Positions 31,554 to 43,399 of a stretch of 64,000 nucleotides of DNA are shown here, piece after piece. Each line of letters opens with the position of its first letter. Position 1 is the first letter of the stretch. The notes beneath the pieces are model-generated. The model did not search any database. It saw only the letters and a list, made by a program, of their open reading frames with translations, and was not told the origin of the DNA. The stretch comes from Rathayibacter sp. Leaf185 (lineage in GTDB: Bacteria; Actinomycetota; Actinomycetes; Actinomycetales; Microbacteriaceae). The stretch lies in the NCBI RefSeq assembly GCF_001423885.1, contig NZ_LMPP01000004.1:186001-250000 (forward strand), read 5' to 3'. Both the position numbers and the translations under genes were made by a program.

Positions 31554-32867
31554 ATGAGTCGTCTTCCCTCCCTCCTCCCGGGCGTGTTCCTGGTGCTCGC
31601 GCTGATCGCTCCGATGCTCTGGACACCGCCCGTCGCGGGCTTCTCGGTGATCGCGCCCTGGGCCGCGCCCGCGCACCGGTACGCCGCGGGGCATCGCGGC
31701 ATCGATCTCGCGGCCTCGCCCGGCGCTGAAGTCGTCGCGGTGGCGGCGGGAACGGTGTCGTTCGCGGGGGCGGTGGTCGACCGGCCGGTGGTGAGCATCG
31801 AGCACGCCGACGGGCTGGTGTCGACCATGGAGCCGGTCATGGCGAGCGTGACGAAGGGGCAGGTCGTTGCGGCGGGCGACGTGATCGGAGTCGTCGGCGC
31901 CGGCGGGCACTGCGACGGGTCGTGCGTGCACCTGGGCGTCCGGGAGGACGGGGAGTACGTGTCGCCGATGCGCTTCTTCGGCGGGATACCGCGGGCGGTG
32001 CTACTGCCGATGGACGATGTCGCGTCAGGCGCGCGGGTGCGCGAGCCGGTAGGCCTCGCGGATGCGCTCGGTCGAGACGTGCGTGTAGATCTGCGTGGTG
32101 CCCAGGCTCGCGTGGCCGAGCATCTCCTGGACCGCGCGGAGGTCGGCCCCGCCGTCGAGGAGGTGGGTGGCGGCGGTGTGCCGCAGGGTGTGCGGGCCGG
32201 AGGGGCCGGAGCCCTGGCCCCCGTCGAGGAGGCTCGCGACGACTCCGTAGACCGTGCGCGGTGTGAGGCGGGCGCCGCGACGACCGAGGAGGAGCGCGTC
32301 GGTGCGCTCGGCGACCAGAGCGGGGCGGGCCTTCTCGAGGTAGGCGACGAGCGCCTCCTTCGCGGGGACGCCGAAGGGGACGACGCGCTGCTTCGAGCCC
32401 TTGCCGGTGACGAGGACGGTGAGCCGGGAGAGGTCGAGATCTCCCGTGTCGATGGCGACGAGCTCCGAGACGCGGATCCCGGAGGCGTAGAGCAGCTCGA
32501 TGATCGCGAGGTCGCGGATCGCGACGGGATCGTCGGTCGCCCCCTGCGCCGACACGATGTCGATGACGTGCTCGGTCTGCGGCTGCGTGAGCACCCGGGG
32601 AAGGGATCGCCCGGCCTTCGGAGTCCGAAGCCGCGCTGCAACGTCGGTCGCGAGTCGCTCGGAGCGGAGGGCCCAGGACGAGAAGGAGCGCACCGCGGCC
32701 GTCCGTCGCGCGAGCGTCGCCCGTGCGACTCCTGTCTGCGACTCGTGCCACAGCCAGTCCCGCAGCAGTTCGAGGTCGAGCTGGTGCATACGTTCGGTGT
32801 TCTTGGTCTTCGCGAACTCGACGAGCTTGGCGAGGTCGCCCCGGTAGCCCTTCGCGGTCGCGGGTGA
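31554..32867 (+). CDS. M23-type peptidoglycan peptidase-like protein, apparently lacking its stop codon
   Basis: The first ~150 residues are a small M23-like exported protein: hydrophobic N-terminus ([16 protein letters not shown]), then [20 protein letters not shown] with the H-x3-D zinc motif and [10 protein letters not shown] near residue 125. The first histidine of the usual HxH is a cysteine. Homologues usually end soon after a stretch like [13 protein letters not shown]. Here the frame stays open for another ~850 bases antisense to xerC, giving 437 aa in total. The true end is probably near 32010, and the stop may have been lost by mutation or frameshift. A +1 shift would stop at 32052. 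Confidence 0.6.
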
Positions 32868-32936
32868 GAGGGATCGCTCGTCGAGCACGTAGCGGAGGAA
32901 GTCCTCGACCGCGCCGGCGAGCGAGTCGTCAGGCAT
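32025..32936 (-). CDS. xerC: Tyrosine recombinase XerC
   Basis: Site-specific recombinase resolving chromosome dimers at dif with XerD. The 303-aa protein has an N-terminal SAM-like core-binding domain and a catalytic domain. All six catalytic residues are present: R155 in SGIRVSEL, K182 in GKGSKQR, H249 and R252 in [10 protein letters not shown]275 in LGHASLGTT, and nucleophile Y284. The ATG at 32936 overlaps the metallophosphoesterase stop by 8 bases. It is probably the housekeeping XerC and not the island integrase. Confidence 0.93.
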
Positions 32937-33858
32937 CGGGCATCCGCGACCAGAGGTCGATGCGCCCCTGCTCGTCCAGGCTCTCGAGCTTCTCGATCAG
33001 GTCGGTACCGAAGCGGGTCGCGATCGGAGCGATCGCGGTCGGGACGAGCGACGTCGCAACGGTCTCGGGATGGACGTGCACGAGCGAGAAGCTCTGCGCG
33101 CCGTCGATGCCGCGGAGCTCCCGCTCCGGGGCACTGAGGTCCATCGTGTAGCTGGTCGCGCCGGCGACGAAGACGGGGACACCGGCGAAAGTCGCCGCTG
33201 TCGGGTAGTGCAGGTGCCCGCCGAGGATCGCACGCACGTCGGTGCCCCGCACGACCTCCTCGAGCCGGTCCATCCCGCGCAGTTCGAGCACCGTCATCGC
33301 GCCGAGCGGAGTCGGCAGCGGCGGGTGGTGCAGGGCGATGATCGTGCCGAGCGGGGCCGGGGTCGAGAGCATGTCCGCGAGGGTCTCGAGCTGAGCGTCT
33401 GATAGCGCGCCGTGGTGGAACCCGGGGACGGCGCTGTCGAGGGCGATGAGGCGGAGTCCGCCGAGATCGACGACCTGGTCGATGGGGGTGACGGCATCGC
33501 CCGTCTCGTCGAGGAGCACGCTGCGGAAGGCGCGGCGCTCGTCGTGGTTGCCCATCACCCAGACGATCGGGCACCCGAAGCGCTCACCCAGAGGATCGAG
33601 CGCGACGCGGACCCGGCGGTACGCGTCCTCCTCTCCGCGGTCGGCGACGTCGCCGGTGACGACGATCGCGTCGAGCGCTCCCCCGCGCTCGACGAGCCGT
33701 TCCACGGCCTGCGCGAGCCGGGCGACGGTGTCTACCCGTCCGTAGAGCGGAGCACCCTCCCCGAGGAAGTGCGTGTCACTGAGGTGCGCGATCGCGCGGT
33801 CGGCCGTTCTGAAGTGACCGAGCTGCGGCCTCGCCGCCCGTGCCGTCTCGTCGCTCAC
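32929..33858 (-). CDS. Calcineurin-like metallophosphoesterase (CpdA-like)
   Basis: A 309-aa protein from the GTG at 33858, preceded by AAGGGGAG. The di-metal motifs are in order: [32 protein letters not shown] and GGHLHYP. The closest family is class III cyclic-nucleotide phosphodiesterase/Icc-type proteins; the substrate is uncertain. It overlaps xerC by 8 bases. A TACGCT hexamer at 33884-33889 could be its -10. It is the last core gene before the accessory island. Confidence 0.9.
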
Positions 33859-34227
33859 GCCACTCCCCTTCGCCGATGCGTCTTCAGCGTAGGGCGGACG
33901 ACCGACACGGCCCGTCCCGAATGTCGCGGTCGGACTGCGTCCGGGAATCTCGAACTCCTGCCCGAGCCCGCGACGCGGAGCAGAGATCGCAGCGCCGACG
34001 GAACAACGACAGCGGCTGCGACGCAGCGTGATCCTGCGGATCTGCACACGCGGCGTTTTACCCTCCGACCCCAGCCGTTGTGTTCCACGAACAGCCTGGT
34101 GCTCCGGCGAGAGCATGCAGGCGCCCGCCACCAACCCTCGATCCCTGACAGAAAGGCCTCCCGCGGATGTCACCCTCAGGACCCGGACGTCCGATATCGT
34201 TCCTAGGACTCGACGGAAGGCTCTCCC
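33859..34227. other. Left boundary region of the accessory island, no gene seen
   Basis: About 370 bases with no convincing coding frame. The first part is GC-rich like the core. Composition drops near 34,200-34,250. The ribosome site GGAAGG precedes the restriction-modification start. No tRNA, integrase or repeat matching the right boundary near 42,165 was found by eye. Confidence 0.5.
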
Positions 34228-37200
34228 ATGACCAATGGCATCGACACGAGCACTCAACTAGTAAATAACTACTTAGCCAGCCTGCGAGCCATCCACAGCA
34301 CGGGTGCCGGCACCGCCGAAACATCGTATTACCCCGCACTTCACAATCTTCTGTCGGGGCTGGGAGCGGTCGGAAGCAGGCGATGGAGTTCACTTCCAAG
34401 CCCGAGGGGAATCAACGGTGATTTTCCTGATGTGGCTCTCTACGACAATAGAAGCAACGTTCTAGTTCTACCAATTGAGGTCAAAGGCTGGGATCACTCA
34501 ATTGAGGCCCTCGCAATTTCACCACAAGCGAAACGTTATGCAAAGTCATTCGGTGGCGGCCGAATTCTGGTCACCAATCTTGTGTCCTTTGCCGTCTCCG
34601 AACTGGACGTAGCCTCAGATACCCTCCGTTTGCGTGACCTCATCACTCTGACAGACCCAATCAGCCCGCTCGCTAGCCCGGTAGACGGAGCGGTCGCTCG
34701 ACTCCTCGGATTGCTAGACGCTTCGACCACAGTACGAGGCTCAATAACGAGACCGCGCGCGGTCGCAGATCTGCTCGCTTACCACGGTCGACGAATGATG
34801 AAGACTGTAGATGCAGCCGGCGATAGCAAAGAGTTGCTGTCTGCGATCGGTGCCAGCTTCCGTGATGGGCTTGGAATGGACCTCGAAGCGAAAATCCTCG
34901 TTCCGACTACGGTACAAACTGTCGTATACGGCTTGTTCGCGGCGTGGTTGGAAGATGAGACTCCAGACGACTTCGATTGGCTAAGTGCGGCGTATCGGCT
35001 ACGGCTTCCAGTTTACGCCGATATGATTCACACAATTCTGACACCGCGCATCGTGCAAAAGTGTAACCTTCCTCCCATCCTAGAAGACACCGCGCGCATG
35101 CTGTCGTGGGTTGATAGAGATGCATTCACTAAGATGTTCGATGGCGGAGCAATCGAGTATTTCTACGAACCGTTTCTCGCCGCATTCGACGAAAATCTCC
35201 GACGCGAACTGGGTGTCTGGTACACGCCGAAAGCTGTGGCCGAGTACCAAGTAGCGCGAGTTCACCACCACTTGAAGACAGATTTCGGACTTGCGGATGG
35301 AATAGCCGACAGTGTCGAATCTCTCATACTAGATCCCGCGTGCGGTACAGGGACTTATCTCACGCACATCCTGACTGCAATCCGTCAGCATCACCTCGAC
35401 AGCGGACAGCCGGAGATCGTAGCGTCGCAACGGGCGGCCGACGCCGCAAAAACGCGCGTGATCGGCTTTGAGATTCTCCCAGCCGCTTTCGTCATCGCCC
35501 ACATCAACGTGAGCCACCTTTTGGCCTCCTGGGGAGTTCCTCTGCAAGATGGCGAACGCGCACGGATATATCTCACCAATTCATTGATCAACTGGCAACC
35601 CGAGGGGAATCCTCCGGCATTCCCGATCGAAGCACTTGCCGGCGAAATTGCCTATGCTCGTGAAGTCAAGAATGTCGAGCCCGTTCTAGCGATTATTGGA
35701 AATCCACCCTACGAAGGATTCTCAGCAGCTGAGACTGCCGAGGAAAGGGAACTACTCAAGCCATGGATTGAGGGACTCTTTTCCATATATGGCGTTCGTA
35801 AGCATCGGTTGGGTGATCTATACGTTCGCTTCTGGCGTGTCTCAGTCTACAAGGTCGAGAAACTCACCACGCGAGGAATTGTTAGTTTCATCACCAACCG
35901 ACGATGGCTCGGCGGCCGATCCTTCCCGATCATGCGAGATGCAGTTAGGACAGCTTTCGACCAAGTGATGGTCGACGACCTACATGGTGATATTCATGAG
36001 CGGCTCGGGAACGACGGAAGCATCTTCACGACTGCCACTGCGAGCGGGATTCGAGTTGGCACCGCGATTGTGACCGGAGTCCGGACATCCGGGACAGCGG
36101 CTCTTACAGCCAGGCGACGGGACCTTATCGGTAGCGGCGCACAAAAACGCGACCAGCTTTCAGCCTTCGCTGATGACATTCTCAAGACGGACGAATCTTA
36201 CGAAGAAATACAGCTCAGCCGCGCCGCCAGATGGCGCTTCACGTCACAGGCGCCCTCTGACGCACCAGCATTAGACGAGTATTTCGTCCGGCATTTTTCT
36301 GGGGTACAGCCGGTACGCGATGATGCTGTGCTTGACGTTTCAAAAGAATCCCTAACGGTACGGATGAAGGCATATTACGACTTTAGCGGCACAAGCACTG
36401 AGCAACTGATGTCAGATTATCCTGCTTTCGCTATTGAGCGTTCGCGGTATGTGCCAGCTAAAGTTCGAGCAGCTCTGGCCGAAAGAAACGCCATTTTCGA
36501 GAGCGATCGCGTCGTTGAGTTCGAATACCGGCCGATGACCCGACGATGGATGTATTGGGAAACAAGATCGAAATTGCTCAATGAGGCGCGTCGAGATCTG
36601 TTCGAAAGCTGGGTTGGCGTGGACGGACAGCGTGCGATCGCGTGCGCCCAGATTGCGCGACGCCCTGGTGGAGCTCGACCGATCGTGACGTCGGCAGTTC
36701 CTGCCTACGCAAGTACGGACCCAGACGCTCGCGTCTTTACAAGGCTAATAGATTATGGGACCGCAATGAGTGCAGCACCTTCGGATGCGTTCGATCTAGA
36801 GGTTGAGACTGCCGGCGAGCTCAAAGGTGTTCAGACTGCTATTGACCACTCCTGGATCAAAGCTGCACGGGAGATTGGGATTCGAGGGTCGGACACGGAG
36901 GTTGGGGACATCATCTTCTATGCGATCATCGCGATCTCTGCGAGCCCCGACTGGCTCGATCTACAACCCGCACAGTCGGACGACTTTCCTGTCGTTCCGA
37001 TTCCAAGCGACGCACAGGGCCTCTTAAAGACAGCCACGGCTGGTCGTCTCGTCGCTGACCTTCTTGATCTAAGCGTTGGGGTGAAAAATGTGACTCAGGG
37101 GCCCCTAGCGCCAGACCTTGCGTCCGTCGGTGTCCCAACCAGCTTCGACGCTGCAATCCTACGGGAAGGCGTACGGGGCCAATACGGGGGAATTTACGAC

Positions 37201-37464
37201 GCAAAAACGGAAACGGTCTGGTGGGACTCATCTGCAGGGGGCGGTTGGAGCGGAATCCCGCGCGCAGTCTGGGAGTATTCAGCCGGTGGCTTCCCCATCC
37301 TCGCAAAATCGCTTGCGTATGGCGTGAATCAGACTTTGACAGCTCCGGATCGAGAATTGTTCATGGAGAGGGCTCGGCGACTTGCAGGGATTATTGCGAT
37401 GCAGACCCAACTGAATGAACTTCTCGTTCTCGCGGTTGCATCCCCGTTGGATAACAAGTCCTGA
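34228..37464 (+). CDS. Single-polypeptide restriction-modification enzyme (Type IIG-like, with Type ISP-like methylase/specificity regions)
   Basis: A 1078-aa protein. An N-terminal PD-(D/E)xK nuclease is suggested by PDVALY (D68) and IEVKG (E84, K86). A helical linker leads to RRELGVWYTPKAVAEYQ and then an N6-adenine methyltransferase with motif I DPACGTGTY (369-377) and motif IV GNPPY (491-495). The last ~450 residues are probably the DNA-recognition domain. No helicase motifs are visible, unlike full Type ISP enzymes of over 1500 aa. Codon use and base composition are clearly AT-richer than the flanks, indicating transfer. It is a solitary gene with its own terminator. Confidence 0.85.
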   Translation: MTNGIDTSTQLVNNYLASLRAIHSTGAGTAETSYYPALHNLLSGLGAVGSRRWSSLPSPRGINGDFPDVALYDNRSNVLVLPIEVKGWDHSIEALAISPQAKRYAKSFGGGRILVTNLVSFAVSELDVASDTLRLRDLITLTDPISPLASPVDGAVARLLGLLDASTTVRGSITRPRAVADLLAYHGRRMMKTVDAAGDSKELLSAIGASFRDGLGMDLEAKILVPTTVQTVVYGLFAAWLEDETPDDFDWLSAAYRLRLPVYADMIHTILTPRIVQKCNLPPILEDTARMLSWVDRDAFTKMFDGGAIEYFYEPFLAAFDENLRRELGVWYTPKAVAEYQVARVHHHLKTDFGLADGIADSVESLILDPACGTGTYLTHILTAIRQHHLDSGQPEIVASQRAADAAKTRVIGFEILPAAFVIAHINVSHLLASWGVPLQDGERARIYLTNSLINWQPEGNPPAFPIEALAGEIAYAREVKNVEPVLAIIGNPPYEGFSAAETAEERELLKPWIEGLFSIYGVRKHRLGDLYVRFWRVSVYKVEKLTTRGIVSFITNRRWLGGRSFPIMRDAVRTAFDQVMVDDLHGDIHERLGNDGSIFTTATASGIRVGTAIVTGVRTSGTAALTARRRDLIGSGAQKRDQLSAFADDILKTDESYEEIQLSRAARWRFTSQAPSDAPALDEYFVRHFSGVQPVRDDAVLDVSKESLTVRMKAYYDFSGTSTEQLMSDYPAFAIERSRYVPAKVRAALAERNAIFESDRVVEFEYRPMTRRWMYWETRSKLLNEARRDLFESWVGVDGQRAIACAQIARRPGGARPIVTSAVPAYASTDPDARVFTRLIDYGTAMSAAPSDAFDLEVETAGELKGVQTAIDHSWIKAAREIGIRGSDTEVGDIIFYAIIAISASPDWLDLQPAQSDDFPVVPIPSDAQGLLKTATAGRLVADLLDLSVGVKNVTQGPLAPDLASVGVPTSFDAAILREGVRGQYGGIYDAKTETVWWDSSAGGGWSGIPRAVWEYSAGGFPILAKSLAYGVNQTLTAPDRELFMERARRLAGIIAMQTQLNELLVLAVASPLDNKS

Positions 37465-37483
37465 CCGGGAGTCAAGTCAGGAC
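37458..37483 (+). terminator. Terminator of the restriction-modification gene
   Basis: An 8-bp perfect inverted repeat (GTCCTGAC/GTCAGGAC) with a 10-base loop straddles the stop codon. Confidence 0.55.
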
Positions 37484-37625
37484 GACAAACGCCGCCAACT
37501 TTGGCCTTGACCTGAGCCAGTGAAGAGGTTGTGGGGAATTATTTGTCGCTTCGCAAGAAGTCGCCACCCTGCAACCGACTCGCTTGGGTCAGGTGCCAAT
37601 GGTCCTCTTTTTCAACGGTAGCAAA

Positions 37626-37790
37626 TCAAAAGTCAAAGTCTTCGGCCTCGTCGCTTGCGTTTCCGTACCATAAGGTCGTGACGCCGCACGAACACCACCA
37701 ATATGCCATCACGGGTACGCGACGTGTGTATGAGCGAAATAGCAAGGCTGCACCGCAGCTCAGGCAACGCAGGCATAAATCGTCGTTCAT
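37626..37790 (-). CDS. Small zinc-ribbon protein (54 aa)
   Basis: Start ATG 37790, stop TGA at 37626. The cysteines are arranged as LCLRCLSCGAALLF, then YWWCSCGVTTLWYG, suiting one zinc site. The tail is acidic. It converges on the restriction-modification gene. Its ATG overlaps the stop of a 25-residue frame (37787-37864, ATGA), which could be a coupled leader peptide or the end of a decayed gene. Function unknown. Confidence 0.5.
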   Translation of the reverse strand: MNDDLCLRCLSCGAALLFRSYTRRVPVMAYWWCSCGVTTLWYGNASDEAEDFDF

Positions 37791-37864
37791 TCGTCTAGTG
37801 TCCTCGACTGCCGATGGAACATCTCGGTCAGTCGCAAAACATCGGTGCCGCCGAGGTCGGTCAT

Positions 37865-38380
37865 TAGCTCGGTTGGTTTGAAATCCGCGTATCAGGCGTG
37901 AACCCCGACGTCCAGCTCCCCTCAGTTCAGCCCCGGGAGATTGTAGCGTGGACCCGTTGGAGCTTGCTCGGCTTCTTCAATCCCTCAAGTGATGGTGCCG
38001 ACGTGGGTGCGTCGACGCCTCCTGCGCGTGGTCACTGCACACAGGATTTTGGCCAAAGCACCGCCGCTGATCCTCCCATGGCGCAGACCGTGCACTATCG
38101 GCAACCGTCCCGCCGACCACGCGGCGCTGGCGGTTTCTTCTTGCGACACGTCCGGAATCTAACTCTGGAAAGACAAAGTCACGCGATCTCCGGAGACAAC
38201 GCCAGCACACCACAGAGCATCGCAGCGCCTCATAGCACCAATTTGCGGCAGCCGATTAAGGCGAGCCTTCCCATCCTGAGGATCATTACCGATTGGCCGC
38301 GAGTACTCTAACCACGAGGAAAAGTGAATAATCGAGACGGCCACATAAGTACGTCTCGATGTCGCTGAGTGAGGGGAAAC
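37865..38380. other. Gene-poor island stretch
   Basis: About 515 bases. Several short frames exist on both strands, but none has family resemblance, a good ribosome site or consistent codon use. It may be eroded sequence. I found no trace of the missing comM C-terminal half or of dprA here. Confidence 0.4.
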
Positions 38381-38494
38381 ATGTCGACGGACGGGATAGA
38401 AAAAGAGCGCAACAACGAGGCGCGGCGGCGAGCAGGTGTCATGGCAACTATTGGCATCGTCGTCAAACCTATCCGCATATTTGTCAGGAATTGA
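38381..38494 (+). CDS. Possible small protein (37 aa)
   Basis: ATG after GAGGGGAAAC, stop TGA at 38492-38494. The product is highly charged at first (EKERNNEARRR), then has a short hydrophobic run with KPIRIFVRN at the end. A strong hairpin terminator begins 5 bases after the stop. The ribosome site plus terminator suggest a real unit. Function unknown. Confidence 0.4.
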   Translation: MSTDGIEKERNNEARRRAGVMATIGIVVKPIRIFVRN

Positions 38495-38498
38495 AAGG

Positions 38499-38542
38499 GC
38501 CCCCTCCCTTGCGAGGGTCTGAACTCAAGCAAGAGAGGGGGC
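38499..38542 (+). terminator. Terminator of the 37-aa gene
   Basis: A 14-bp stem with one mismatch (GCCCCCTCCCTTGC against GCAAGAGAGGGGGC) and a 16-base loop. Confidence 0.65.
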
Positions 38543-38554
38543 GTCGCTAGGCTA

Positions 38555-38870
38555 TTACTGGCCGGGACGAAATCCCTTCCGGCGTCCCGCGAGGCGTTCA
38601 GCCGGGCCTAGCACGGCGCTGTTGGGTGCGAGCTGGTTGAGCTTAGCCGGGGTGACGACCATCTCGATCATCGCCCGTTGCGGAACTCGAGCGCCACCAG
38701 CTTAGCGACAGGCTTTAGATCCTTGATTTCGGTCGCGGGAGCGTCGAACTATTTCTGCTCATTGAGATCAGGGGGCGGACAACGATCGTGGCGATCGGGT
38801 CGTCCTGGGCTTCGGCACCGGTGACGTCCGAAACCCTGATTTCGCGGCGCCCAACGGGATCGCACTTCTT
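38555..38870 (-). pseudogene. Decayed gene of unknown function
   Basis: Protein-like stretches occur in shifting frames on the minus strand: GRREIRVSDVTGAEAQDD, then TEIKDLKPVAKLVALEFRNG, then VVTPAKLNQLAPNSAVLG ending at a TAA at 38555. At least two frameshifts separate them. The gene lies just downstream of the small-terminase-like remnant. The family is not recognised. Confidence 0.4.
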
Positions 38871-38887
38871 GTTATCGTTGATCTACA

Positions 38888-39172
38888 TTGGTTACGGCGG
38901 TCTGTCATTAGCTTGGTGATCGTTGCGTCGAAGCATCCATAGAGGCCACCATTGATCAGCCGGCGTGCTTGAACCTGCATAGCTCTGTCAAAGATGTGGG
39001 AAGACTCCATACCGAAAGGCGTCGTCAACTCGCACCATGCGTAGAGCGTGGTCCGATCAATGTCGAGATACAGGCCAAGGCCCTAACGAGTTGGCAGATC
39101 TGCAATGCACTGGTCTGCATACTTCGATGCTCGCTCGACGAGATTTTTAGGTAGCGTTGTGGGTCTTTCCAT
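38888..39172 (-). pseudogene. Phage small-terminase / DNA-packaging (gp3-like) gene, broken by a stop
   Basis: From ATG 39172 the frame reads ERPTTLPKNLVERASKYADQ, then CIADLPTR, a TAG at 39083-39085, then GLGLYLDIDRTTLYAWCE, FSHIFDRAMQ-like sequence (SSHIFDRAMQVQARRL) and INGGLYGCFDATITKLMTDRRN. The order of a helix-turn-helix (DIDRTTLYAWC) then LINGGL and an ATITKLM helix is what I remember of gp3-type DNA-packaging proteins. One in-frame stop plus a downstream frameshift mark it as broken. It follows the 198-aa membrane gene by 25 bases. Confidence 0.5.
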
Positions 39173-39197
39173 ATACCACTGTTCTATCATAGCTCTG

Positions 39198-39794
39198 CTA
39201 TTTGACCCAGCGCCAAGGTGTGTATTTTTGGCTCTTGTACCATGCGCGGAAGCGGCTGAGTGCCTTCGTATCAACAGGAACGATTGTCCCGTCGTGCACT
39301 ATTGAATCGTATTCGACAGCGGTTGCTTCGACAAACGCACTACCGTCCGATTTCTTGTGCCATACCTTGCCATTGATGTCCACAAAACGGATAGCCGCAC
39401 GGGTGTATTTGTTACCCACGTCTTCGAAGATCACTTCATTTGTCGTGTTGGGGTCAATCATCGGAGTCGTGAGGGGCATCGCCGAATGGGATATGAGCTC
39501 GGTACGCAATTCACCCTTTTCAGTGCGAAGCGCCAATGTAGGCAATAGAATTGGTGTGATCGGCCCGTTCACCCACGTGACGATCGCATTAGTGGTGGTG
39601 TCATCTTGCGGGTGGAACACCATCGTCAGGTTGAATGAGTCGGGAGCGATACGAGCCTTGGCCCGGACGTCACCTCGCCACACTCGGTACGCCACGACGA
39701 CCGCCAGGATTGTGCCGATGCCAGAGAGCCAGTCAGCGAACTCGCCTGGCTGGAGGCCGAACACGTTCTTGACGAAGTCCCAGAATCCATCCAC
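39198..39794 (-). CDS. Membrane-anchored protein of unknown function (198 aa)
   Basis: The frame is intact between decayed neighbours. The start is the GTG at 39794. One membrane segment is present, ADWLSGIGTILAVVVAYRVW (residues ~20-40), then a basic stop-transfer stretch and a ~150-residue soluble domain, probably mostly beta, ending YTPWRWVK. No family recognised. Proteins with an N-terminal single TM of this form occur in actinobacterial prophages and islands. TAGGCT 6 bases upstream may be a -10, but it overlaps the stop of the preceding remnant. Confidence 0.65.
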   Translation of the reverse strand: MDGFWDFVKNVFGLQPGEFADWLSGIGTILAVVVAYRVWRGDVRAKARIAPDSFNLTMVFHPQDDTTTNAIVTWVNGPITPILLPTLALRTEKGELRTELISHSAMPLTTPMIDPNTTNEVIFEDVGNKYTRAAIRFVDINGKVWHKKSDGSAFVEATAVEYDSIVHDGTIVPVDTKALSRFRAWYKSQKYTPWRWVK

Positions 39795-39800
39795 GCACGG

Positions 39801-39806
39801 AGCCTA
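39801..39806 (-). promoter_or_regulatory. Possible -10, leaderless spacing (198-aa membrane gene)
   Basis: TAGGCT, 6 bases, GTG. The TAG of this hexamer is also the stop of the upstream decayed zinc-ribbon frame, so the match may be coincidental. Confidence 0.35.
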
Positions 39807-40040
39807 GCGTTGCGCCTCCACTACGTAGTCCACGAGCACCTTCGCCTTGCAACTTGTGCAGCCCAGCACGACGAACCAGGCCGTTGCTCTAGACCGGTCG
39901 TTCCCTGCCGTCACGTCTGCTTGAACCGCTGCCACGTGTGCTCGCACGTCGTCGGCTTATGGCGTGCGAAGCGGCGTGCCTCAGCGGCCTCCCGGATACG
40001 ACCGTGCAGAGCGGATCGAAGCGTGTCTATGGGTGGTCAT
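39804..40040 (-). pseudogene. Decayed small zinc-ribbon gene
   Basis: ATG at 40040 after GGGGGAGAGG gives TTHRHASIRSA. A shifted frame continues GRIREAAEARRFARHKPTTCEHTW-type sequence (PTTCEHTWQRFKQT). A third frame gives WFVVLGCTSCKAKVLVDYVV ending at TAG 39804-39806. CEH plus CTSC would form a zinc site. Two frameshifts are needed to join the parts. Confidence 0.45.
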
Positions 40041-40605
40041 GCCTCTCCCCCGTGCTTTAGGATAGGCGCCGATGTTGTAGGCGGACCAGGCGGACCAACC
40101 GCCGCCCTGGTAGGTCGTCCACGCTGCTCGGGCGTTCGCCTCGAGCTGCAAGCGCTCCTCGTCGCCGATCAGTCCGATCCGCAGGTGAATCCTGTTGGCT
40201 GCATCAGCCCGGCGTCGTTTCTGCCGTTCGTGTCCGCCTCGTTGACGGCGTCAGCTCTACAACCGCTCTCGGCCCGCATCACGGCGAGTGCCGTGTCGAC
40301 GTCCCCGGCGTACTGCTCTAGGAGCGGTCCGTACTGCTCACACCCGCTTGGTGCTGGCGATGGTGCTGCGGGCTGCGCAGGAGCGCTCTGTGCCTCGACT
40401 GGCTGCTCAGGTGGACTTGGTGCCGCTTTCGGTTCTTTGACGCTAGCTACGGCGACTAGCGGGCTTCTTTTGACGCTGCTGCTACCGCTCGTTCGATCTG
40501 GCTCACGTTGAGGGACCGCAGTGTCCAGCCGGTGATGATGCCAGCGAGGCTGAACGCCATGATGGCGACGATGAACCATGGCAGGATTGGTGAGGCGATG
40601 GTGCG
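40038..40605 (-). pseudogene. Frameshifted membrane-anchored transglycosylase (SLT-type) gene
   Basis: Three frames join into one protein: a TM segment (ILPWFIVAIMAFSLAGIIT), a Pro/Ala linker leading to DTALAVMRAESGCRADAVNE with the catalytic Glu of RAES, and a C-terminal part with EANARAAWTTYQGGGWSAWSAY. The order matches small SLT-domain proteins of phages and mobile elements in actinobacteria. The two frame changes are near 40,470 and 40,190. It is probably a lysis or cell-wall gene that has lost function. Confidence 0.6.
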
Positions 40606-40688
40606 CTTGAATCAGTTGGGTTGATTTGATGGTACAAATCTGTCGTCGTGTGTAGTACTCCTATTCCGTTTTCCTTAGTTAGGTGTGC

Positions 40689-40757
40689 TTACTTGACTTC
40701 TGCGAACGTGGTCTTGCTCGGCGTTCGGCAGTCCGTGATTGCTATTAGGTCAGTCAT
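40689..40757 (-). CDS. Possible 22-aa peptide at the head of the phage-like block
   Basis: ATG 40757 after AAGGAAAC, stop TAA at 40689. It lies downstream of a clear minus-strand promoter and before the transglycosylase remnant. It may be a leader peptide. Confidence 0.3.
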   Translation of the reverse strand: MTDLIAITDCRTPSKTTFAEVK

Positions 40758-40805
40758 GTTTGTGTTTCCTTGTTTGTTTGACTTCCTTTGGTTAGGCATG
40801 AACAC

Positions 40806-40834
40806 TATGTATAGTCGATACTATTCTTCGTCAA
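40806..40834 (-). promoter_or_regulatory. Promoter for the minus-strand phage-like block
   Basis: TTGACG as -35 at 40829-40834 and TACATA (17-base spacer) or TATACA (15-base spacer) as -10. It is the most AT-rich point of the window and faces away from the 322-aa gene. Confidence 0.5.
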
Positions 40835-40837
40835 TGG

Positions 40838-40843
40838 TACGCT
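40838..40843 (+). promoter_or_regulatory. -10 element, leaderless spacing (322-aa gene)
   Basis: TACGCT, 6 bases, ATG. It lies back to back with the minus-strand promoter, within 5 bases of its -35. Confidence 0.55.
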
Positions 40844-40849
40844 GTCGCC

Positions 40850-41818
40850 ATGGCAATAACCTATTCGGTCAAGACGTGGTTCAGAGTCCCGTCGGATAAG
40901 ACCATCGGCTTCACCTCAGACGTCGACATCGAGGTGGCGGGAAAGCCTTACGAGGTCAAGATCGATGGACACCGAGTTTGGACCAGTTTCCCCGACTTCG
41001 ACAAGGAACGAGACACGCAGGGACTATTAAACCCGGAGACAGGCGACCTCTTCGCCGTTGCCGCATTCAGAGTCTTTGCCACGTCATTCCTTGTAGTACC
41101 AGATGATGCCACGCCTAGTCAGATCCAGAAGGAGGTCGGCGAGGCCAGTGAGAGAAATCACACGGCCGCAGTGCGGCTAGTGGACGCTCTGCGCATTGCC
41201 AGTCCAAACACAGGCTTGGTTGGGACACGACTAGAAAGCATCCACGCCACGTACAACAGGGTTCCGGGCGGGGAAGCTGTTGAAATGACAATCCGCACTC
41301 CGAACCGAGGTGTCATTGTTGGCTACCCCTCGCTTCCCTTGTCGCTTGCGGATCGGGTGATGGCGCAGGGACCCGACATCGTGAGCGTTCTAATGGCACA
41401 GGCGACATTCAATATTCGGCACTCTGTCGACCCGAATCCTCAACTCGCCGTGCTTCTGGCCGCCATTGCGTGCGAAGTGCATGCCACGCAGCTCATCGAG
41501 GCCACGGTAGATACTGCTGACGCTGACACCGTACGAAATTTTTATAAAGTTGCCAACCGAGCTCGGGAGCCGAAGGAGAAGTACGGAAAGCTCGCCAAAG
41601 CCCTTTGGTCGAAATCATTAGAGGCCGAGCACCCTGCCCTCTGGAAGCACTTGGTCGAACTCTTCGCAGTCAGGCACCGCATCGCTCACAGCGGTGCTCT
41701 CGTAGAGTTGGAAGCTGGAGAGCCGTTGGTATACCAGGCAAGGCTCGCCATCCACTGGCTGACCCTGATATCCGAGGGAAAGGACTCTAAGACGCTTCCG
41801 ATGTTCCCGATCGTCTGA
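40850..41818 (+). CDS. Unknown protein with an HEPN-like R-x4-H motif (322 aa)
   Basis: I do not recognise the full-length family. The N-terminal ~180 residues look beta-rich (VKTWFRVPSDKTIGFTSDVD, TRLESIHATYNR). The C-terminal ~120 are helical, with a segment LLAAIACEVHATQLIEA and FAVRHRIAHSG (R275, H280). The R-x4-H with following small residues resembles ApeA-like HEPN domains, which include RNases of defence systems. This is a motif-level match only. The gene is intact, stands alone with its own promoter, is less GC-rich than the core, and converges on the SOS-controlled gene with 8 bases between. Confidence 0.55.
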   Translation: MAITYSVKTWFRVPSDKTIGFTSDVDIEVAGKPYEVKIDGHRVWTSFPDFDKERDTQGLLNPETGDLFAVAAFRVFATSFLVVPDDATPSQIQKEVGEASERNHTAAVRLVDALRIASPNTGLVGTRLESIHATYNRVPGGEAVEMTIRTPNRGVIVGYPSLPLSLADRVMAQGPDIVSVLMAQATFNIRHSVDPNPQLAVLLAAIACEVHATQLIEATVDTADADTVRNFYKVANRAREPKEKYGKLAKALWSKSLEAEHPALWKHLVELFAVRHRIAHSGALVELEAGEPLVYQARLAIHWLTLISEGKDSKTLPMFPIV

Positions 41819-41826
41819 CGGACCCC

Positions 41827-42129
41827 TCAGATCCTCCGCACAGCGTTGGCCCACACCCAGGCGTCGAGCTTCGTCCCGTCCGACGTGCTCCACTCGACGT
41901 GGACCCCTCGGTCGTTCCACTCCACGGCGTACGCCTCGACGACGACGCGCTGCTCATGGAAGCGCACCCACGCCTCGACCTTGACAGCTGCACCACGGCA
42001 GACGGGGCTGCGGGCGATGTCGAGCTCCTCGGGCGTCAGGCTCACGGGCGCCGGCCTGACGGCAGCTTCGGCGACACGTTGCGCCATCTGCCGGTCGATG
42101 CTGTCTGCGTAGCGTCGGTTGGTTCCCAT
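41827..42129 (-). CDS. Small conserved actinobacterial protein under a LexA box (100 aa)
   Basis: From ATG 42129: TNRRYADSIDRQMAQRVAE, a middle stretch VSLTPEELDIARSPV, then a beta-rich C-terminus ending DAWVWANAVRRI. Proteins of this form recur in Microbacteriaceae genomes and plasmids without known function. A CGAAC-N4-GTTCG palindrome lies 16 bases upstream of the ATG, so SOS control is likely. The same frame is open upstream into the truncated comM, so a 336-aa fusion could also be made from the yraN-comM transcript. Confidence 0.65.
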   Translation of the reverse strand: MGTNRRYADSIDRQMAQRVAEAAVRPAPVSLTPEELDIARSPVCRGAAVKVEAWVRFHEQRVVVEAYAVEWNDRGVHVEWSTSDGTKLDAWVWANAVRRI

Positions 42130-42144
42130 GACGTCCCACTGTAG

Positions 42145-42160
42145 CCGAACGTATGTTCGA
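42145..42160. promoter_or_regulatory. LexA (SOS) box
   Basis: CGAAC-GTAT-GTTCG matches the actinobacterial/Gram-positive SOS core CGAAC-N4-GTTCG exactly. It precedes a TACAGT hexamer and the ATG of the 100-aa gene on the minus strand. It abuts the point where comM homology ends. Confidence 0.8.
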
Positions 42161-42165
42161 ACACA

Positions 42166-42837
42166 GGACGGCAGCAGGAACACGTGGCGACCACCCGCCG
42201 CCGCGACGATCATCGCCTCCGCCACCTCCTCGCTGCCGATCACGTCCGCGAAGTCGAGGCGCGCCTCAGGATCGATCGGCGCCGCGGGCGCCGTCGTCTC
42301 TTTCGGCAGAACCGGAAGCTCCCACTTGGTGCCGTGCCAGACCGCGGCAGCCGCGAGGGAGGACACCGCGATGACCTCGACCCCGTCGACGAGCTCGGCC
42401 TCGAGCCGGTCGGCGGAGGGGACCATCACCCGCCGCCGGCCCTCGCGTGCTGCCGCGAGCACCGCCGGCAGCACTCCTGCCACCGACCGCAGCCGGCCGT
42501 CCAATCCCAGCTCGCCGACATGCACGACCGACGCCACCGACTCCGCATTCACCTCCCCCAGCGCCGCCAGCGCCGCGAGCCCGATCGTGAGATCGAACGC
42601 CGACCCGTGCTTGGGCATCGCCGCCGGCGACAGGTTCACCGTGATCTTGTACTCCGAGATCACCGAGCCCGAGTTGATCGCCGCCGATCGCACCCGCTCC
42701 TTCGCCTGCGACAGCGCCGCATCCGGCAACCCGATGATCATCACGCCCGGCGTCCCGTCGGCCGAGTGCGCCTCGACTCCGACGACCGCGCCCGTGAAGC
42801 CCACGAGGCCCACCGACGACGTCCTCCCGATACCCAT
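42166..42837 (-). pseudogene. comM: ComM/YifB Mg-chelatase-like ATPase, N-terminal fragment truncated by the island
   Basis: Starts at ATG 42837 (or GTG 42840, overlapping the yraN stop). It contains the full N-terminal lon-protease-like domain (GVMIIGLPDAALSQAKERVR, KITVNLSPA, GSAFDLTIGLAAL) up to DFADVIGSEEVAEA and GGRHVFLL. The Walker A sequence that should follow directly (GPPGAGKT type) is missing. Island sequence continues in frame instead. ComM helps branch migration of incoming DNA during transformation. Without its AAA+ domain this fragment cannot work. Confidence 0.88.
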
Positions 42838-43190
42838 CACGCCACCGCCCGCAGATGACGCACCTGCGTAGGCACACCCTCCGGCGCGATGATCCCCACC
42901 GCATCGATCCGCAGACGCCGCGACCGCTCGTGATGCTCGTGCGCCCACGCATACGCCAGACGCCGCAACCGCTGCGCTTTCGCCCGCGCGATCGCCTCGA
43001 CCGGCAACCCGAACCGCGTCGACGAACGGGTCTTCACCTCGACCACCACCAGCGCCGCGCCCTCACGCGCCACGATGTCCAGCTCGCCCTCCCGCACCCG
43101 CCAATTGCGATCCAGGATCTCGAAACCGTGCGCCTTCAGATGCGCCGCAGCGATCTCCTCGTCACGCCGCCCCAACTCGTCCTTATCCAT
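42837..43190 (-). CDS. yraN: YraN family (UPF0102) nuclease-fold protein
   Basis: A 117-aa protein with a PD-(D/E)xK-like core: GELDIVAREG (D38) and VVEVKTRSS (E51, K53). The ATG at 43190 follows GGGAGG by 5 bases. It overlaps the comM start, as is usual next to comM. Function is not established; the fold suggests DNA or RNA cleavage or binding. Confidence 0.9.
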   Translation of the reverse strand: MDKDELGRRDEEIAAAHLKAHGFEILDRNWRVREGELDIVAREGAALVVVEVKTRSSTRFGLPVEAIARAKAQRLRRLAYAWAHEHHERSRRLRIDAVGIIAPEGVPTQVRHLRAVA

Positions 43191-43355: not shown

Positions 43356-43399
43356 GGGATCTCTATACGCCGCCGGAGGCGGCTACTCGATCAGCAGGG
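43356..43399. repeat. Intergenic hairpin repeat of Microbacteriaceae type
   Basis: GGGATCTCTATACGCCGCC leads to a hairpin at 43369-43383 and then GGCTACTCGATCAGCAGGG. From memory, similar TCGATACGCC...GGCTACTCGATCAGC elements are scattered in genomes of this family. It occupies the ~300-base gap between yraN and DUF2469, which otherwise shows nothing coding. Confidence 0.5.

What the first reader, a model, noticed from the sequence alone, without database searches (positions are those of the whole stretch)
34200..42172. Accessory island has replaced most of comM and apparently dprA
The N-terminal domain of ComM is intact, but homology stops exactly before the Walker A motif. AT-richer foreign sequence continues in the same frame. 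In related Microbacteriaceae I recall yraN-comM-dprA-xerC-like order; here the comM ATPase half and dprA are absent and 8 kb of accessory genes stand in their place. comM is a known integration site for resistance islands in Acinetobacter. A comM-targeting island in an actinobacterium that also removes dprA would block processing of incoming DNA.
Basis: partly seen in the sequence, partly recalled or inferred. Interest (0 to 1): 0.85.

Follow-up and report, generated by a model that had tools for sequence, protein, structure and literature searches.

The report
Phage-remnant island replacing comM and dprA
In this Rathayibacter bacterium an 8.3 kb patch of foreign, partly phage-derived DNA stands where the motor half of comM and all of dprA should be, two genes thought to process DNA taken up from outside; in related bacteria the same gene pair is a repeated landing place for mobile DNA.

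Summary
The window is from Rathayibacter. comM keeps 221 codons (42173-42837, minus) and stops directly before Walker A. A GC-poor block, 33913-42172 (8260 bp, GC 0.572 against 0.705 in the flanks), stands where a close relative (G003) has 2318 bp: the comM ATPase half plus dprA. Neither was found elsewhere in the genome. The block holds phage-gene remnants, an intact Type ISP restriction-modification enzyme and a 322-aa orphan. No integrase, att arm or flanking repeat was found, so I read it as a deletion/replacement scar, not a clean insertion.

The wider idea, comM as an actinobacterial integration target, is strongly supported. In Microbacteriaceae, serine integrases of three divergent lineages enter comM at the same Walker B codons, one at Walker A, one near the C-terminus; tyrosine recombinases sit at a third motif; a related integrase clade enters dprA. 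comM as a serine-integrase target is already published. Joint loss of comM and dprA recurs in two other genera (G052, G227), each time with defence-like cargo, without a base-rate control. Loss of transformation is inferred, not shown. New variant of a known kind.

The parts
33913..42172 (.). Foreign block standing where relatives have the comM ATPase half and dprA
   Evidence: Homology to relatives stops at both ends; GC 0.572 vs 0.705, 2318 bp in its place in G003
42173..42837 (-). comM 5' remnant, 221 codons, cut directly before Walker A
   Evidence: TIGR00368 positions 5-217 of 499; junction; start codon
41827..42837 (-). Open frame fusing the comM N-terminal domain to an element gene (336 aa)
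   Evidence: Translation
41827..42129 (-). 100-aa element gene, no family; relatives 73% and 70% identical inside the comM islands of G005 and G011, 40% in the dprA element of G297
42146..42160 (-). TCGAACATACGTTCG, exact match to the SOS-box-like pattern searched (pattern recalled)
   Evidence: 2 of 100 shuffles of the window reach its 7 matches with up to one mismatch; same residues in the L033 frame
40850..41818 (+). 322-aa ORF, no family, no PADLOC match; carries an Rx4H string (RHRIAH) of the kind seen in HEPN proteins (recalled motif)
   Evidence: structure model useless, mean pLDDT 36
40169..40579 (-). 136-aa remnant related to a phage transglycosylase-like gene of the relatives' islands
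   Evidence: ORF; window 40472-40825 is 70-74% identical to L033/L031; the L033 gene matches PHROG transglycosylases, E 2.4e-8
39198..39794 (-). 198-aa ORF, no family, related to ORFs in the comM islands of G005 and G011
38906..39189 (-). Remnant related to a terminase small subunit gene
   Evidence: 74% nt to L033:6713-6996; that gene matches phrog_606, E 1.2e-5
38574..38911 (-). Remnant of an element gene shared with the G005 and G011 islands
   Evidence: 74% and 73% nt
34228..37464 (+). Type ISP / IIG restriction-modification enzyme, 1078 aa, intact frame
   Evidence: PF18135 E 1.1e-17, N6_Mtase; PADLOC REase_MTase_IIG E 4.1e-63; plasmid relatives annotated type ISP
32929..33858 (-). Native metallophosphoesterase gene flanking the block
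   Evidence: PF00149 E 3e-18
32025..32936 (-). Native xerC
   Evidence: TIGR02224 E 1.1e-94, below its cut-off
42837..43190 (-). Native yraN, overlapping the comM start (gene name recalled)
   Evidence: ORF; conserved in relatives

Best explanation
The block is the scar of a phage-type element at a locus that such elements enter again and again. An element related to those in comM of other Rathayibacter reached the yraN-comM-dprA locus; it decayed, its integrase and att ends were lost, and one or more deletions took the comM ATPase half and dprA. A restriction-modification enzyme and a 322-aa orphan now occupy the place. Shown: the ends, the absence of both genes from the assembled genome, the remnants shared with comM islands of relatives, and the use of comM and dprA as recombinase targets across the family. 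Inferred: the order of events, and the consequence (from the recalled roles of DprA and ComM): DNA entering through ComEC would be neither handed to RecA by DprA nor extended by ComM, so the strain should recombine incoming single strands poorly and be less able to shed mobile elements by transformation.
For: Abrupt boundaries against relatives. The block shares four segments with the comM island of G005 and five with that of G011 (67-77% nt). In the genus 4 of 15 genomes (own included) carry an element at one exact comM site, Walker B: G009 with a serine integrase and a major head protein, G005, G007 and G011 with broken phage genes. comM is entered at Walker B in 12 of 299 family genomes, all among the 30 re-examined; with G009, 13 of 13 have a serine integrase within about 1.7 kb of a junction. 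dprA is missing in only 9 of 299, own included.
Against: No recombinase, att arm or flanking repeat in the block. The break is at Walker A, not at the Walker B site of the related islands. The shared segments are only 73% identical on average although the G011 backbone is 87-94% identical, so the window's element is a cousin, not the inherited island of G011. The phage matches rest on the relatives' copies. No intermediate stage was found. Competence of this organism is untested.
Confidence: 0.62

Rival explanations
1. Integrase entry at Walker A. A serine-integrase element of another kind integrated at the Walker A codons, 42172 is its attL, and a later deletion removed the other end with the integrase, the comM 3' half and dprA.
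For: G148 has a 35 kb gap in comM with a serine integrase at the junction, which falls in the Walker A codons within about two codons of the window's break. The order of shared segments in the window is a rotation of that in G011, as if one circle had been opened elsewhere, but 4 of 24 orders of four markers are rotations.
Against: By eye no similarity between the sequence after the window's break and that after G148's; no integrase left; homology to the interior of other islands begins 11 bp from comM.
Confidence: 0.2
2. Two related elements, one in comM and one in dprA, recombined with each other and so deleted the DNA between them.
For: Related serine integrases enter comM and dprA, and the dprA element of G297 carries a relative of the window's 100-aa gene.
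Against: It should leave the dprA 3' part next to the metallophosphoesterase; none is found. No doubly occupied locus turned up among the loci read, though I made no search for one.
Confidence: 0.07
3. One-sided homologous plus illegitimate recombination with incoming DNA brought the block in and removed comM-dprA in one step.
For: In G005, G007 and G011 a second yraN and an intact comM stand beyond the island, as if a broken comM had been replaced from one side, so such events are plausible here.
Against: No donor found; no second comM in the window block.
Confidence: 0.07
4. Assembly or contamination artefact.
For: Sharp GC change at both ends.
Against: 9-contig genome, 99.99% complete, block inside one contig; comM ATPase half and dprA found on no contig; the same type of loss in two other good genomes.
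Confidence: 0.03

Closest known systems
Serine-integrase elements in the magnesium chelatase (comM) gene (Durrant et al. 2022, PMC10083194, section 6 read)
   Same: [quoted passage not shown] the elements in the window's relatives look like this kind. That their gene is comM is my reading of the name.
   Different: The window has no integrase and has lost the comM 3' half and dprA. Their supplements were not available, so I cannot say whether these species or dprA are listed.
Mobile elements in comM of Aggregatibacter, Acinetobacter, Mannheimia, Francisella and Pseudomonas syringae (Croucher et al. 2016, PMC4774983, passages)
   Same: comM broken by mobile DNA, explained as conflict with transformation.
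   Different: The cases in their figure have an integrase similar to CF65_00446; loss of dprA is not mentioned in the passages seen.
AbaR islands in comM of Acinetobacter baumannii (PMC7508600, listing with title and start of abstract)
   Same: Island in comM; by the title its removal increased natural transformability.
   Different: Resistance island, transposon type (recalled), against a phage-derived remnant.
Wolbachia sr1WO prophage in magnesium chelatase (PMC9203015, passages)
   Same: Serine-recombinase prophage splitting a gene of the same name.
   Different: Portions of the gene kept on either side; other host lineage.

Membership tests
Serine-integrase element in comM | Large serine integrase in the element | tested here: not met
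   None of 22 recombinase queries (three comM lineages, Walker A, C-terminal, dprA and tyrosine types) matches the block at E 1e-3; no relative of the G009 integrase in the own genome at 1e-40, a threshold that would miss other lineages. Met in G009.
Serine-integrase element in comM | comM split at a precise site, both halves kept | tested here: not met
   Only positions 5-217 of comM left.
Serine-integrase element in comM | attL/attR with short common core and inverted arms | tested here: not met
   No repeat of 10 bp or more between the boundary zones. In G009 core and inverted arms are seen (arms by eye).
Prophage remnant | Recognisable but broken phage genes | tested here: met
   Segments shared with terminase small subunit and transglycosylase-like genes of G011; the phage-family matches are of the relatives' copies.
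Genomic island replacing comM-dprA | Derived state: relatives have the intact locus | tested here: met
   Intact order in relatives; dprA in 38 of 40 and 290 of 299 genomes, own genome included in both.
AbaR-type comM island | Tn7-like transposition genes and resistance genes (recalled) | tested here: inconclusive
   None among the four island ORFs searched; no dedicated search was run.
Type ISP / IIG restriction-modification | Single chain with methylase and ISP C-terminal specificity domain | tested here: met
   PF18135 and PF02384 over their cut-offs.
Loss of natural transformation | Strain not transformable | not testable with these tools
   Only gene content known: comM ATPase half and dprA absent, comEC-type gene present.

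The most novel reading that the evidence does not exclude
The yraN-comM-dprA locus of Microbacteriaceae is a pathway-level target of mobile DNA. Unrelated recombinases have settled on different conserved motifs of comM, and a clade related to one group of comM integrases has settled on dprA, so what is selected is the breaking of incoming-DNA processing rather than one DNA site. The end state, seen in three genera (window, G052, G227), is replacement of the processing pair by cassettes with antiphage genes (Type ISP enzyme; TIR-TM; HEC-01A/B): a host that trades transformation for defence.
Probability: 0.3. Interest if true: 0.72.

Novelty: new variant of a known kind. Interest (0 to 1): 0.5.

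Why it matters
comM as a target of serine integrases is published. Joint loss of comM and dprA, entry of dprA by a related integrase clade, and apparent repair of comM by a second copy in Rathayibacter make a natural series: intact, interrupted, repaired, erased. That series makes it testable whether mobile elements are selected to break DNA processing, and whether actinobacteria without proven competence nonetheless need these genes.

Tried and rejected
Clean insertion at one att site: rejected, no repeats, arms or recombinase. The window island as the inherited G011 island: rejected, 73% against an 87-94% backbone. G013 as a second genus member without comM and dprA: not counted, its contig ends at the locus. 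A second copy of the island in the genome: none in the listed matches (40 of 761 candidates scored). G173, G197 and G235, which I first took for Walker B splits: dropped, their halves overlap by 17 to 48 residues at contig ends, so they are contig breaks; G094 was checked the same way and kept. G017, G053, G126, G178 and G236: two matches in one open frame, over the cut-off together, so intact. G202: halves touch, probably a frameshift. G203, G196, G301, G288, G232: fragments at or near contig ends, or only part seen; not counted. G109, G184, G233 and G281 (E worse than 1e-6) were not re-examined. G272: lacks both genes but is a 1.3 Mb genome with another gene order; not counted with the three replacements. 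The 100-aa protein in phages and the 322-aa protein in plasmids: no match. Head protein of G009 in viral contigs: no relative. Structure of the 322-aa protein: mean pLDDT 36, so no fold search. Base rate of defence genes in islands of this family: not measured, so three of three is suggestive only.
Full report
Source. The genus includes a listed pathogen (titles listed), so I describe and mend nothing.

Observation. BLAST of window 28-48 kb against same-genus loci shows homology ending at 42172/42173 in comM and between 33792 and 33933 upstream of a metallophosphoesterase gene, 33912 in G003 and G011. The remnant ends directly before GPPGAGKT. In G003 the interval is 2318 bp and holds the comM 3' half and dprA. 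In the own genome TIGR00368 finds only positions 5-217 and TIGR00732 nothing. The comEC family PF03772 is found in all 15 genus genomes, in G000 in an open frame of 1090 codons.

What fills the place. An intact 1078-aa Type ISP/IIG enzyme, a 322-aa orphan, a 198-aa and a 100-aa element protein without family, and remnants shared with the comM islands of G005 and G011. Of the ORFs of the block only these four were searched in family libraries. An exact SOS-box-like string lies at 42146-42160 upstream of the 100-aa gene; with one mismatch allowed the window has seven matches at four places, 2.33 expected, and 2 of 100 shuffles reach seven.

Relatives in the genus. In 4 of 15 genomes (own included) comM is entered at one exact point, the Walker B codons. 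G009: clean split, serine integrase beside the 3' half, primase-like, terminase-small-subunit-like and major head protein genes (phrog_3990, E 4.2e-93) in 12 kb. G005, G007 and G011: an orphan comM 5' part, phage-gene remnants, then a second yraN with an intact comM and, beyond it, dprA; the two comM copies are 93-97.5% identical within a genome and 76-90% between genomes. Their left ends share a GTGGAGCTGCAAAGTACACCACG-like sequence, which by eye resembles inverted arms of the third integrase lineage. I read this as repair of a broken comM from one side; that is inference. The G005 and G011 islands are 86% identical over 6778 aligned bases, like their backbone (82.7-88.4%), so this island may be inherited.

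Relatives in the family. TIGR00368 matches 276 of 299 genomes, own included, 246 over the cut-off. I re-examined 30 with weak best scores. Twelve have comM entered at Walker B: G070, G083, G085, G094, G108, G154, G165, G217, G220, G253, G292, G300. G148 is split at Walker A, G115 and G260 near residue 340. Three that looked alike (G173, G197, G235) are contig breaks. Genomes with an intact best match were not re-examined, so these are lower bounds: G007 and G011 have extra pieces, and G018 has comM entered near residue 473 with a serine integrase there. In 13 of 13 Walker B genomes (the 12 plus G009) a serine integrase lies within about 1.7 kb of a junction. Linked at 35% identity over 250 aa, those compared form three groups, 21-31% alike where BLAST aligned them, with the Walker A integrase apart; three of the ORFs used (G253, G220, G108) run on into comM sequence, so their values are rough. 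G115 and G260 have a tyrosine recombinase at the junction.

dprA is entered too. In G297, G312 and G054 a dprA 3' part begins at residue about 250 beside a serine integrase; in G297 both halves were seen, 10.8 kb apart, comM intact. In a 45-row tree (aligned stretches under 250 aa and duplicates were dropped) the seven comM rows fall in one branch with two unlabelled rows (99/96) and the three dprA rows in another with one unlabelled row (100/100); the root is a midpoint, and the dprA branch lies inside a larger group with targets unknown. Of 51 named loci found with the G009 integrase, 4 lie at comM (Rathayibacter, Microbacterium oxydans, M. algeriense, Demequina) and one, Naasia (L128), at dprA; the other 46 showed neither within the fetched flanks of at most 3 kb.

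Other joint losses. dprA is missing from 9 of 299 family genomes, 4 of them among the 268 of good quality: G000, G052, G227 and the small-genome G272. None of the four has a complete comM. Genomes without comM that keep dprA are commoner, many of them small, so comM loss as such is not rare. G052: comM ends at residue about 164, no dprA in the fetched stretch, AT-richer DNA with a TIR-TM protein and a small resolvase up to a glycosyltransferase and the metallophosphoesterase. G227: yraN, comM and dprA not found, 3.4 kb of GC 0.53-0.59 with a HEC-01A/HEC-01B pair (E 3e-119 and 1.4e-55) between DUF2469 and the metallophosphoesterase. Three of three with defence-like cargo has no base-rate control, and most other proteins of these blocks that I scanned matched nothing in PADLOC.

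Literature. Durrant et al. 2022 (PMC10083194, section 6 read) already report a magnesium chelatase gene as the target of 12.4% of site-specific serine integrases and enrichment of competence genes. Croucher et al. 2016 (PMC4774983, passages) and a Wolbachia paper (PMC9203015, passages) give further cases. Searches for comM with dprA, islands, defence or actinobacteria listed nothing that by title or abstract concerns joint replacement of comM and dprA; this covers only the open-licence library, and the hits were not read through for it.

Verdict. Observation confirmed; comM as an actinobacterial target supported but known in kind; the window itself is an eroded scar whose making I infer. The bold reading, pathway-level targeting of DNA processing with replacement by defence cassettes, is not excluded and is testable.

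Noticed in passing
L031, L033, L034 (G005, G011, G007): Orphan comM 5' part, phage-gene remnants, then a second yraN and an intact comM: three Rathayibacter genomes appear to have regained comM beside the element.
   Followed up: partly
L179:1392-13354, L180:7670-9183, L181:3849-5182: dprA entered by serine-integrase elements at the RFLQRNRLIAA codons; the integrases form a clade related to one group of comM integrases.
   Followed up: partly
L119, L117/L118 (G115, G260): comM entered at the LVLAANPCPCG codons by elements with a tyrosine recombinase followed by large ORFs without family, perhaps a recombinase trio.
   Followed up: partly
L174:13156-15972 (G227): HEC-01A/B pair and a 230-aa ORF stand where yraN-comM-dprA should be.
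   Followed up: partly
window 43360-43388: Palindromic intergenic repeat GAGTAGCCGCC..GGCGGCGTATCGAGA upstream of yraN; 5 places with up to 2 mismatches in the genome, 0 for the backwards control.
   Followed up: partly
L031:8711-9601: ArdC-like anti-restriction gene in the G005 comM island (PF08401), while the window's island has a restriction enzyme.
   Followed up: no
L178 (G018): Serine-integrase element of about 15 kb entering comM near residue 473 and separating it from dprA.
   Followed up: no
L035 (G032, same order): comM pieces 3-79 and 76-499 about 9.5 kb apart: a further entry point early in the gene.
   Followed up: no
L101:998-3586 (G253): The comM 5' half reads in frame into the serine integrase, an 862-aa open frame.
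   Followed up: no
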